A stretch of 64,000 nt of DNA from Athalassotoga saccharophila (GTDB lineage: Bacteria > Thermotogota > Thermotogae > Mesoaciditogales > Mesoaciditogaceae). Of this stretch, positions 29,475 to 33,163 are shown one piece after another. The stretch's first letter is position 1. The number at the start of each line of letters is the position of its first letter. Both the position numbers and the translations under genes were made by a program. Below the pieces are notes generated by a model, which saw only the letters and a list, made by a program, of their open reading frames with translations, searched no databases and was not told the DNA's origin. The stretch is from assembly GCF_009936215.1 (NCBI RefSeq), contig NZ_AP019551.1, positions 372,001-436,000 on the forward strand. The letters are read 5' to 3'.

Positions 29475-30731
29475 ATGATGAGGGGTAAAGTAATTATCTT
29501 AGTTGCGTTAGTCGCTTTGTTAGCGATTACGGCTCTGGCCGATACTTCTACGGCAGGTTTAACGGGTCCTCAAGGTCCTATACCGTCATGGGACACCGTC
29601 GTTCAAATGGCAAAGCAGGAAGGCTCAGTGTCTTGGTACGCGTACGGTGCCGAATACGACAAACTTTACTTTGAAAGTTTAATACCAAAATTCGAAAAAC
29701 AATACGGTATAAAGGTCAATTTCATATTTGGAGACTGGTACGCATTTTTACAGAAACTTCTTGCCGAACAGAAAGCCGGACAGAATGTTGGAGACATGGA
29801 TCTTGTCTTCACATGGTCAATACCTTTTAACGATGCGTGGAATGCGGGAGTTGTATGGAAGTATCCATGGAGTTACGTTATACCAAACGCAAGAAATATA
29901 GTAGATCCATATTTACTTCAATATACGGACATGATCCCGACAAATGGAGCCTTTGTACCATTTATATGGTGGCAAGTAGCCTTCCTTTACAACAAGCAGA
30001 TGGTCAAGAATCCTCCACAATCATGGGACGATTTAATGGCATGGGTTAAGGCAAATCCGGGCAAATTCACCTATTGTGATCCAAATACCGGCGGAAGTGG
30101 CCATACCTTCCTTATAACGCTTTCACAATGGCTCTACGGCTATGATAGATATTACAATTCAATGGGCATGCCATACAATAAAGCACTTGGATCTGAACTT
30201 TGGAATACCGTCGGACCAAAGGGATACTCTCTGTGGGGATATTTAAAAGAATTACAAAAATACATGTACCAGCCCGGATTCTATCCAGCGGGAAACTCTG
30301 CCGCAATCTCCCTCTTTTCAAAGGGTCAAGTATGGCTTGAGCCACAATGGCTTGACGTTACGGCATCGTGGATAAAACAGGGACTTCTGGATCCGAATAT
30401 AGTTGGCCTCTACATACCAAAACCGACTATGGATGCAGGCGGAATGGATGGACTCTTCATTCCTTATAACGCTCCCCATAAATACGCTGCAATGGTCCTT
30501 GCCAATTACCTGCTCTCGAATGAAGTTCAAACTGGTATAGTACTTGATAGAGGAGGAGCCTTCCCGGTCGTTACGGGAGTCATGAATAAACCAGAGGTTA
30601 TCCAAGCGATAAAAACGCAGCCTTATTGGGTACCACTTGACAGTGTAACGAATCCTCTCTGGCTGAGATCGGGCCTCTACATGGATGAATTGATGAAAGA
30701 CTGGACTCAAATCATCGCGAAGTCTCAATAA
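29475..30731 (+). CDS. ABC importer substrate-binding protein (PotD/YnjB-like)
   Basis: A 418-residue exported binding protein with signal peptide (KVIILVALVALLAITALA, cleavage about residue 23) and Trp/Tyr-rich ligand cleft (WDTVVQMAKQEGSVSWYAYG, DLVFTWSIPF). It belongs to the family-1 binding proteins that go with spermidine/putrescine-type permeases; the YnjB group is the best match I can recall. AGGAGGTG ribosome site. In this operon context (kinase, SDR, phosphatase) the ligand is more likely a polyol or sugar derivative than a polyamine. The gene is separated from its permeases by the IscB element. Confidence 0.85.
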   Translation: MMRGKVIILVALVALLAITALADTSTAGLTGPQGPIPSWDTVVQMAKQEGSVSWYAYGAEYDKLYFESLIPKFEKQYGIKVNFIFGDWYAFLQKLLAEQKAGQNVGDMDLVFTWSIPFNDAWNAGVVWKYPWSYVIPNARNIVDPYLLQYTDMIPTNGAFVPFIWWQVAFLYNKQMVKNPPQSWDDLMAWVKANPGKFTYCDPNTGGSGHTFLITLSQWLYGYDRYYNSMGMPYNKALGSELWNTVGPKGYSLWGYLKELQKYMYQPGFYPAGNSAAISLFSKGQVWLEPQWLDVTASWIKQGLLDPNIVGLYIPKPTMDAGGMDGLFIPYNAPHKYAAMVLANYLLSNEVQTGIVLDRGGAFPVVTGVMNKPEVIQAIKTQPYWVPLDSVTNPLWLRSGLYMDELMKDWTQIIAKSQ

Positions 30732-30735
30732 AATT

Positions 30736-30762
30736 AGGTCAGGCTCTACGCCTGACCTTTTT
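30736..30762 (+). terminator. Intercistronic terminator-like hairpin after the binding-protein gene
   Basis: AGGTCAGGC / GCCTGACCT, 9-bp perfect stem, 5-base loop, then TTTT. Same place as the hairpin in the sugar operon at 2287: after the binding-protein gene and before the permeases, so it is likely an attenuator of downstream expression. It is followed at once by AGGAGGG, the orphaned ribosome site of the permease gene. Confidence 0.7.
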
Positions 30763-30774
30763 AGGAGGGAAGAG

Positions 30775-31000
30775 TCAACACCCCACCACCTTTAGAGGTG
30801 GGGGCTTGTAAAAGCCCTTGTTGATTAGCCTAAGTCGCAAGACTACGTTATTCGTGTCATGACACCCTGAGATGCTGCTCAAGTTTCAGGCTCTGTCGTT
30901 TACCATTAAACAGTTCTGATGGGTAGGAACAGTGTGGTAAGCCCAAAAGCACGAATAACATTGGCGATGAGCATCTAACAGTCGCAAGACTGACTTATCT
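30775..31000 (+). ncRNA. Omega-RNA of IscB (guide scaffold)
   Basis: Directly upstream of iscB, where omega-RNA is expected. Complementary segments I can pair by eye: TCAACA (30775) with TGTTGA (30819); CCCC/GGGG end stem; GGGCTT-GTAA-AAGCCC (about 30801-30816); AGTC-GCAA-GACT (30833-30844); GTTATTCGTG (30847-30856) with CACGAATAAC (30950-30959); CCTGA (30866) with TCAGG (30886); GTTC...GAAC inside ACCA...TGGT; CAGTC-GCAA-GACTG (30979-30992). AGATGCT (30870-30876) in a loop pairs with AGCATCT (30970-30976) outside, making a pseudoknot as in known IscB omega-RNAs. By the family rule the guide is the 5' end, copied from the flank ending near 30774. Confidence 0.8.
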
Positions 31001-31015
31001 CTGAGGAGATTGAAG

Positions 31016-32266
31016 ATGGTTTACGTAATAAGCAAATCAGGAAAACCTTTGATGCCTACGAAAAGACATGGCAAGGTAAGAAGAATGCTTAAATCTGGAA
31101 TGGCAAAAGTGGTAAGACGCACTCCATTCACGATTCAATTGTTGTATGACTCAGAAGAATACACGCAGGATGTAACAGTAGGAATGGACATAGGATCACG
31201 TCATGCAGGAGCGTCAGCAATATCTGGAAATAAAGAACTCTTTGCAGGACAATTTGATATGAGGACAGATATTCATGATTTAATGACGGAACGAAGAATG
31301 TACAGAAGAGATAGAAGAAGTTATAAAACGAGATACAGAGAAGCACGATTTTTGAACAGGAAAAAAGACAAATGGCTTGCGCCGTCTGTCAGATGGAAAG
31401 TAGAGGCTCACATAAGAATAATTCATTTCCTTTCTAAAATTCTTCCAATTGCAAGAGTAGTTGTAGAAATAGCACCATTTGACACGCAAAAAATAATGAA
31501 TCCCGAGATTTCTGGAGTGGAATACCAGAACGGAGTGCAGAAAGGCTTTAGCGATGTAAGAGAGTATTGTTTGTGGCGTGCTGGGTATAAATCTGAATAC
31601 TCAGGCAAGAAAGGCATTCTTGAAGTTCATCACATTATCCCCAAAAGCATGGGAGGCACAGATACACCGGAAAATCTGATTGTATTAACTGCCGATGAGC
31701 ACAAACAAATACACGAAGGAAAGATTAAGATCACAAAGAGAGTAAATCAAAAGATAAAAGGTTTAAAAGACGCAAGCCATGTTTCCACGATTGGGCAATT
31801 CATAGTATCGGGACTTAGGATAAGATATCTGACAGAAGTAACATTTGGAAATATCACAAAGGGCAAAAGAATGGCAAGCAATTTAAGTAAAACACATGAT
31901 ACAGATGCTCTCATAATCGCAGGAGGAGATGCAACAACGACGAGGACAGAATCATCATTCTTTGCCAAATTTGTAAGAAGGCAGAACAGATCATTGCACA
32001 AAGCAAATATGTTGAATGGTGGGAGAAAGAAAGTTAACACGATCAAATCTGCAAAAGGATACAAAAGGTTTGACAAAGTTCTGTACAATGATGAGGAATG
32101 TTTCATATACGGTCTTCGGACAAGTGGATACTTTGATTTACGAAAGTTGGATGGTAGCAAGATACATGTGTCTGCGAACTGGAAACAGTTAAAGAAACTG
32201 GAAAGTGCAAAAACATTGTTGATAGAAAGGCAGGTGAATGTGGCAATTCCTCTCCAACTTACATAA
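31016..32266 (+). CDS. iscB: IscB RNA-guided endonuclease (Cas9 ancestor family)
   Basis: About 416 residues; ATG at 31016 follows AGGAG, and a TTG at 31010 is less likely. Domains in order: PLMP region (GKPLMPTKRHGKVRRML, about 9-25), RuvC-I (VGMDIGSRHAG, Asp58), Arg-rich bridge helix (ERRMYRRDRRSYKTRYREAR, about 92-111), RuvC-II (VVVEIAPFD, Glu151), HNH (LEVHHIIPKSMGG...PENLIVLT, His205-206), RuvC-III (KTHDTDALIIAG, His294 and Asp297), and a C-terminal RNA/TAM-binding part. All catalytic residues appear intact. The four Cys that form a zinc knuckle around HNH in many IscBs are absent: the first pair reads YKSEYSGKKG and the second LTADEHKQIH. Confidence 0.93.
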   Translation: MVYVISKSGKPLMPTKRHGKVRRMLKSGMAKVVRRTPFTIQLLYDSEEYTQDVTVGMDIGSRHAGASAISGNKELFAGQFDMRTDIHDLMTERRMYRRDRRSYKTRYREARFLNRKKDKWLAPSVRWKVEAHIRIIHFLSKILPIARVVVEIAPFDTQKIMNPEISGVEYQNGVQKGFSDVREYCLWRAGYKSEYSGKKGILEVHHIIPKSMGGTDTPENLIVLTADEHKQIHEGKIKITKRVNQKIKGLKDASHVSTIGQFIVSGLRIRYLTEVTFGNITKGKRMASNLSKTHDTDALIIAGGDATTTRTESSFFAKFVRRQNRSLHKANMLNGGRKKVNTIKSAKGYKRFDKVLYNDEECFIYGLRTSGYFDLRKLDGSKIHVSANWKQLKKLESAKTLLIERQVNVAIPLQLT

Positions 32267-32286
32267 GATCGGAGTCTCCTTGCCAC
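32240..32286 (+). repeat. Right-end hairpin of the IscB element
   Basis: GTGGCAA (32240-32246) pairs with TTGCCAC (32280-32286), and inside CTCC pairs with GGAG (32271-32274). It overlaps the last 9 codons of iscB and ends eight bases before the permease ATG. Imperfect end hairpins are what Y1 transposases recognise. Confidence 0.6.
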
Positions 32287-32293
32287 AAGAACG

Positions 32294-33163
32294 ATGAAGC
32301 CAAAGGTTAAATTTTCCGTTGCGTTACTTTACCTTTCTCCGGTTATCATCTTTTATTCTTTTATATTCGTTTTACCCTTGATCTTGGTTTTTCTCCAATC
32401 CTTTGGACTTTACAGTTTGGGGCCAATGAAGCCTCCAAAGTTCACCTTAGAATATTATTTGAAATTTTTCGATTTAAAAGGACCTTATCTTGAGAGTTTA
32501 TGGTTTAGTTTTTGGAATTCAGCCCTTGCCACTGTGATTATAAGCGTAATTTCATTTTTTCTTGCGATCTTTTTCTATTTTGTCAACTTCAAGGGTAAAT
32601 CTTTTGTTTCTGCAACGTACAAAATACCTTTGTTCATTCCTTATTTGATCTCCGCATTCGCGTGGTGGAATTTACTCTCTCCCGGTGGATACGCTCAAAG
32701 ATTACTCGCCGCAACAGGGATAGTAAATCCGAATATGTTGCTTGTGAATGATCCGAATGGAATAGGAATAATAGTGGCAAATGTTTGGATGAATTTTCCT
32801 TACATGGTGCTCTTGATAACTGGTACACTCAAAATGATAGATCCAACTTTGATAGAAGCCGCAAGAACATTGGGATCGACCTTTTGGAAGAGTATTTTTA
32901 AAATAGTCCTTCCATTATCAATGCCTGGATTTTTGGCCGGATCTATTCTTTCTTTCATAGGCATGTTTGGGGCCTTCTCCGTTGCCTTCATCCTTGGAGC
33001 AAGTTGGCCACAGTACATGTCGATATCCATATACAATGACGTAACGCAATTTTCCGAGTACGGGATGGCATCGGTTCAGTCTGTCATATACATGATAAGT
33101 GCGATTTTAATAACTTATTTTTACACAAAGATAATAGCAAGGCTTCAAGGTGAAAGACGATGA
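32294..33163 (+). CDS. ABC importer permease 1 (PotB-like)
   Basis: A 289-residue inner-membrane permease with six helices and the EAA loop LIEAARTLGSTFWKSIFKIV (about 190-209). It opens KPKVKFSVALLYLSP. No Shine-Dalgarno sequence lies before its ATG, because the IscB element sits there; the AGGAGGG at 30763 looks like the one that was displaced. Translation may now be poor or depend on read-through from iscB. Overlaps permease 2 by ATGA. Confidence 0.9.
   Translation: MKPKVKFSVALLYLSPVIIFYSFIFVLPLILVFLQSFGLYSLGPMKPPKFTLEYYLKFFDLKGPYLESLWFSFWNSALATVIISVISFFLAIFFYFVNFKGKSFVSATYKIPLFIPYLISAFAWWNLLSPGGYAQRLLAATGIVNPNMLLVNDPNGIGIIVANVWMNFPYMVLLITGTLKMIDPTLIEAARTLGSTFWKSIFKIVLPLSMPGFLAGSILSFIGMFGAFSVAFILGASWPQYMSISIYNDVTQFSEYGMASVQSVIYMISAILITYFYTKIIARLQGERR

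What the first reader, a model, noticed from the sequence alone, without database searches (positions are those of the whole stretch)
30770..32286. IscB RNA-guided nuclease with its own structured omega-RNA in a thermophile
Seen directly: PLMP, split RuvC, bridge helix and HNH, with every catalytic residue in place. Upstream is a non-coding block whose helices can be paired by eye, including two GCAA-tetraloop stems, a 10-bp helix (30847-30856 with 30950-30959) and a pseudoknot (30870-30876 with 30970-30976). Known family: IscB uses an omega-RNA encoded just upstream with the guide at its 5' end. Inference: an active, compact (about 416 residues), heat-stable system.
Basis: partly seen in the sequence, partly recalled or inferred. 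Interest (0 to 1): 0.8.

Follow-up and report, generated by a model that had tools for sequence, protein, structure and literature searches.

The report
IscB mobile element splitting a gene start
This is a genuine member of the known IscB/omega-RNA (HEARO) family of RNA-guided DNA cutters, sitting as a mobile element exactly between a transporter gene's ribosome-binding site and its start codon, in a bacterium that does not look heat-loving.

Summary
Window 30774-30979 matches Rfam HEARO (165.9 bits; cutoff 83) and 31016-32266 encodes IscB (NCBIfam guided_IscB, 328.8 bits; cutoff 175) with all RuvC/HNH catalytic residues. Covariation in 26 Thermotogota RNAs supports the fold. The protein is under purifying selection (dN/dS about 0.1).

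A same-genus genome carries the uninterrupted site; the insertion made no duplication. It lies between the Shine-Dalgarno sequence and the ATGA start of an ABC permease gene. Three short, internally deleted copies in the same genome have equally exact empty sites and end at ATGA. So the guide should be the host's ribosome-binding region (about 30758-30773) and the TAM ATGA, and the complex should cut the empty allele, favouring the element's retention. That step is inferred from TnpB/IsrB work.

"Thermophile/heat-stable" is not supported (composition estimate about 40 C, against 57-82 C in relatives). No TnpA was found in four genomes of the genus, so mobility would need help. The HNH zinc cysteines are lost in this clade.

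Verdict: new member of a known kind.

The parts
30758..30773 (+). inferred guide segment of the omega-RNA (TTTTTAGGAGGGAAGA); host DNA carrying the Shine-Dalgarno sequence of the permease gene
   Evidence: immediately 5' of the HEARO match; the same sequence is present at the empty site of genome G003 with one mismatch; the 16-nt length is taken from general knowledge of IscB, not measured
30774..30826 (+). left end of the element = 5' domain of the omega-RNA (closing helix plus two hairpins); the part kept in the short copies
   Evidence: fold -23.4 kcal/mol; 96-98% identical in two short copies of the same genome and 83% in a third
30774..30979 (+). omega-RNA scaffold (HEARO)
   Evidence: Rfam RF02033, 165.9 bits against gathering score 83, model 1-211 complete; covariation
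30847..30959 (+).
   Evidence: perfect pairing; its two parts 93% and 85% paired in relatives with changes on both sides
30876..30973 (+). pseudoknot supported by covariation: 30876-30881 (TGCTCA) with 30968-30973 (TGAGCA)
   Evidence: 81.9% paired over 12 distinct arm pairs, 0 of 10,000 shuffles as high
30979..30992 (+). 3' terminal hairpin CAGTC-GCAA-GACTG
   Evidence: sequence; listed as a 5-bp hairpin; equivalent hairpin with other letters in several relatives
31016..32266 (+). iscB, 416 aa (ATG start; an in-frame TTG at 31010 would give 418 aa): PLMP, RuvC-I D58, bridge helix, RuvC-II E151, HNH H205/H206/N220/H229, RuvC-III H294/D297
32242..32293 (+). right end of the element, with the imperfect hairpin 32252-32274 and terminal ...TTGCCACAAGAACG
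   Evidence: shared, with small differences in the last bases, by ten copies in this genome and G002; fold
32294..32297 (+). ATGA: target tetranucleotide / inferred TAM; also the start codon of the ABC permease gene
   Evidence: ATGA follows the right end in 10 of 10 copies of the genus with a clear right end; the empty site in G003 reads GGAGGGAAAA-ATGAAGCC
29475..30731 (+). upstream host gene: ABC transporter substrate-binding protein
   Evidence: PF13416 2.9e-26
32294..33163 (+). interrupted host gene: ABC permease, separated from its Shine-Dalgarno sequence by the element
   Evidence: PF00528; 94% identical uninterrupted orthologue in G003

Best explanation
A non-autonomous IS200/IS605-type HEARO/IscB mobile element of 1520 bp (30774-32293), inserted without target duplication 5' of an ATGA that is the start codon of an ABC permease gene (shown by the empty site in a same-genus genome). 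A transcript, most likely from the host operon's promoter because the guide lies outside the element, should carry the host's Shine-Dalgarno region as guide, followed by the omega-RNA; IscB binds it (inferred from family membership). The complex should recognise the same sequence followed by ATGA, which exists only in chromosomes that lack the element, cut both strands with HNH and RuvC, and so favour re-copying of the element by recombination. The cutting step and the TAM are inferred. Mobility today would need a TnpA acting in trans, since none was found.
For: HEARO hit and covariation; IscB family, fold and residues (best PDB match OgeuIscB, Foldseek E 1.1e-27); purifying selection, dN 0.079, dS 0.60; exact empty site; three more copies in the same genome (305, 306 and 169 bp) with exact empty sites in G003 and ATGA at the right junction; 10 of 10 right ends in the genus followed by ATGA, against about 1 in 178 positions at random. 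The related IsrB from Desulfovirgula uses an NTGA TAM and cleaves ATGA targets (PMC9581776). The TnpB/ISDra2 model of cutting the donor joint is in PMC8612924. The guide has no other match with fewer than 2 mismatches in its own genome.
Against: No Y1 transposase (TnpA) in the four genomes of the genus by two models, so current mobility is not shown; the genome is 91.6% complete. No expression or cleavage data. No promoter-like excess upstream. The empty-site neighbour has one mismatch to the guide close to the TAM (GGGAAAA against GGGAAGA).
Confidence: 0.85

Rival explanations
1. A stranded, decaying copy: protein and RNA still look intact, but with no TnpA in the genus the element no longer moves and the nuclease has no job.
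For: No TnpA in four genus genomes; the other three copies in this genome are internally deleted; the right-end hairpin in the window is imperfect compared with the short copies (-7.5 against -19.2 kcal/mol).
Against: IscB kept open with dN/dS about 0.1 against G002; RNA complete; few HEARO/IscB loci carry TnpA anyway (PMC9755519).
Confidence: 0.25
2. Domesticated: the IscB complex, or the element's right end, has been adopted to control the ABC transporter genes it splits.
For: It sits co-directionally inside the operon and separates the permease start codon from its Shine-Dalgarno sequence; the guide is a ribosome-binding region.
Against: Catalytic residues intact; insertion absent from the only relative with the same operon; the other copies sit at unrelated genes.
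Confidence: 0.05
3. The ORF and RNA are a chance resemblance, or the RNA block is not an omega-RNA.
For: None found.
Against: HEARO 165.9 bits; guided_IscB 328.8 bits; covariation beyond all 500 shuffles and all slid controls.
Confidence: 0.01

Closest known systems
IscB / omega-RNA (HEARO) systems, e.g. OgeuIscB (PDB 7UTN, 7XHT, 8CSZ)
   Same: PLMP, split RuvC with bridge helix, HNH, C-terminal TAM-interacting region; HEARO RNA directly upstream; best sequence and fold matches in the PDB
   Different: 416 aa rather than about 496; short linker, no REC insert; HNH zinc cysteines absent; only about 24% identical over the structure alignment
IsrB (DtIsrB, PDB 8DMB)
   Same: NTGA TAM, with ATGA active (PMC9581776), matching the ATGA found at every junction here
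   Different: IsrB lacks HNH and is a nickase; this protein has HNH
IS200/IS605 elements with TnpB (ISDra2)
   Same: Insertion next to a fixed short motif without duplication, hairpins at both ends, RNA-guided nuclease whose guide is the flanking DNA
   Different: TnpB is the Cas12-type nuclease with the guide on the 3' side; here the guide is on the 5' side and no TnpA is present

Membership tests
IscB (NF040563) with omega-RNA (HEARO, RF02033) | protein scores above the curated cut-off | tested here: met
   328.8 bits against 175
IscB (NF040563) with omega-RNA (HEARO, RF02033) | PLMP motif, RuvC D/E/H-D, HNH histidines and asparagine | tested here: met
   L12-M13-P14, D58, E151, H205, H206, N220, H229, H294, D297 invariant or nearly so in alignments A1 and A3
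IscB (NF040563) with omega-RNA (HEARO, RF02033) | HEARO RNA directly upstream on the same strand | tested here: met
   30774-30979, full-length model match, 36 nt before the ATG
IscB (NF040563) with omega-RNA (HEARO, RF02033) | RNA structure kept by compensatory changes | tested here: met
   202 compensatory cells, 0/500 shuffles as high; slid controls 13-44
IscB (NF040563) with omega-RNA (HEARO, RF02033) | guide-directed double-strand cleavage next to a TAM | not testable with these tools
   needs a purified complex; TAM ATGA inferred from junctions
IS200/IS605 mobile element | insertion at a fixed short motif with no target duplication | tested here: met
   four exact empty sites in G003; ATGA at 10 of 10 right junctions. 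In G003 two of the four orthologous sites read GTGA.
IS200/IS605 mobile element | hairpins at both ends | tested here: met
   left and right end folds; essentially only these ends are kept in the short copies
IS200/IS605 mobile element | TnpA (Y1 transposase) in the element or the genome | tested here: not met
   PF01797 and NF033573: none in G000-G003. So it is at most a non-autonomous element of this type.
Heat-stable IscB of a thermophile | thermophilic host | tested here: not met
   IVYWREL estimate 38 C on the window, 43 C on 160 kb of the genome; four relatives of the class 57-82 C by the same method; an indirect estimator

The most novel reading that the evidence does not exclude
In Thermotogota, HEARO/IscB elements preferentially invade translation-start regions (ATGA after a Shine-Dalgarno, or the ATGA stop/start overlap of operon genes), so that their guides are captured ribosome-binding sites and their omega-RNA is transcribed from a host promoter in the direction of the split gene. 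This would tie target choice, guide content and guide expression together.
Probability: 0.35. Interest if true: 0.5.

Novelty: new member of a known kind. Interest (0 to 1): 0.33.

Why it matters
It is a well-bounded natural IscB element whose empty site is known, so the homing prediction (cut guide+ATGA, then re-copy the element) has a defined natural substrate. The co-directional insertion between Shine-Dalgarno and start codon suggests how a guide lying outside the element comes to be transcribed. A compact HNH without zinc cysteines may interest enzyme engineers. The basic system itself is already well known.

Tried and rejected
Thermophily: not supported by composition with in-class comparison. 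TnpA or TnpB in the own genome: none; TnpB copies exist in G001 and G002. Plasmid carriage: no near match. Promoter within the region: no excess over shuffles. dN/dS against G001 and G035 could not be computed. Key papers (Science 2021 abj6856; Nature 2009 nature08586; Nature 2023 s41586-023-06597-1) are not held, so what I recall of them on HEARO target sites and thermophilic IscB was not used as evidence. No paper joining IscB, omega and Thermotogae was found.

Full report
What is there. The window carries, on the + strand, an Rfam HEARO RNA at 30774-30979 (165.9 bits, gathering score 83, full model) followed 36 nt later by a 416-aa open frame, 31016-32266. The protein matches PF14239 and HNH, the NCBIfam equivalog guided_IscB far above its cut-off, and in the PDB first of all OgeuIscB-type chains. 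An AlphaFold model from an alignment of 17 sequences (mean pLDDT 73.8, weak in the HNH surroundings and linkers) has OgeuIscB, OrufIscB, TbaIscB and IsrB among its best fold matches. All catalytic positions are present and invariant or nearly so among relatives.

Is the RNA real? HEARO RNAs were collected from other genomes of the class (24 of 121 genomes have one, counting this one) and aligned without structure (26 sequences). The Rfam fold of the window, imposed on that alignment, gives 89.1% paired cells and 202 cells with compensatory changes, beyond all 500 shuffles and far beyond slid controls.

What kind of locus. A same-genus genome (G003) has the same operon with a 94% identical permease and no element. 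Comparing the two sequences gives the junctions...TTTTTAGGAGGGAAGA | GTCAAC...GAACG | ATGAAGCC... against TTTTTAGGAGGGAAAA-ATGAAGCC in G003. So the element is 30774-32293, with no duplication or loss, inserted between the Shine-Dalgarno sequence and the ATG of the permease gene. Three more copies lie in the same genome (604296-604601, 1314743-1315047, 733569-733737 of contig 1). They have lost most or all of the IscB and RNA interior and keep little but the two ends. All three have exact empty sites in G003, two of which read GTGA there. In all four copies the right end abuts ATGA at the start of an open frame that reads as a recognisable gene; two of the four look like ATGA overlaps of one gene's stop with the next gene's start (sequences). 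Six further right ends in G002 also abut ATGA.

How it probably works. In IscB systems the guide lies 5' of the scaffold, so here it is host DNA ending at 30773, and the matching target followed by ATGA is the empty site. A related enzyme, DtIsrB, is known to accept ATGA (PMC9581776). For the TnpB counterpart, cleavage of the donor joint was shown and re-copying of the element was proposed (PMC8612924). I infer the same role here. Shown: parts, boundaries, target, selection on the protein (dN/dS about 0.1). Inferred: transcription from the host operon, guide length, TAM, cleavage, homing. The guide has no match with 0 or 1 mismatches elsewhere in its own genome, so the complex should spare the chromosome that carries it.

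Start-site preference. Among 69 distinct HEARO sites in the class, 23 have at least 5 nt of Shine-Dalgarno complementarity in the last 18 nt before the element, against 30 of 414 control stretches (p about 3e-8). Some genomes (G025, G086) show little of this. Controls were nearby upstream stretches, and insertions inside genes are probably removed by selection, so this does not prove active choice of gene starts.

What does not hold. No TnpA was found in the genus with two models, so the element is non-autonomous here and may be stranded; association of HEARO nucleases with TnpA is rare anyway (PMC9755519). The host does not look thermophilic: IVYWREL predicts 38-43 C, while four relatives in the class come out at 57-82 C by the same script. 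This is an indirect estimator (the formula is from general knowledge) and growth temperature was not measured. Heat stability of the protein is therefore unsupported rather than excluded.

A small variation. In this genus, G035 and L173 the HNH domain lacks the cysteines that other relatives keep (SEYSGKKG and LTADEHK in this protein, in place of CQHCKG and LCETCH), while its catalytic histidines and asparagine remain.

Verdict. A true IscB/HEARO element, a new member of a known kind, with unusually clear boundaries. Interest moderate to low.

Noticed in passing
own genome contig 1: 604296-604601, 1314743-1315047, 733569-733737 (L055, L056, L072): Three short internally deleted copies (306, 305, 169 bp) keeping little but the element's two ends, upstream of a response regulator, a ROK-family gene and a thiamine pyrophosphokinase-like gene (named from their first residues); exact empty sites in G003.
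   Followed up: yes
left flanks of 69 HEARO loci in the class: Guide regions are enriched for Shine-Dalgarno sequences (23/69 against 30/414 controls).
   Followed up: partly
G001 (L096) and G002 (L158) left flanks: Two genomes of the genus carry a HEARO element after the same left-flank sequence, the end of a NifX-like gene, with different right flanks; inherited insertion or homing to the same site.
   Followed up: no
window 31565-31723 (HNH region): Zinc cysteines of the HNH domain replaced in this clade although catalytic residues are intact.
   Followed up: partly
G030 contig 1, 1481021-1481994 (L089): A divergent IscB-like fragment lies beside an intact-looking TnpA, a possible autonomous element and source of transposase.
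   Followed up: no
G025 contig 1: Seventeen HEARO matches in one single-contig genome, where IscB matches are only short fragments.
   Followed up: no
window 30736-30758: A 9-bp hairpin followed on the + strand by a T run lies between the substrate-binding protein gene and the element; the inferred guide overlaps the T run, so read-through would be needed for a host-promoter transcript.
   Followed up: no
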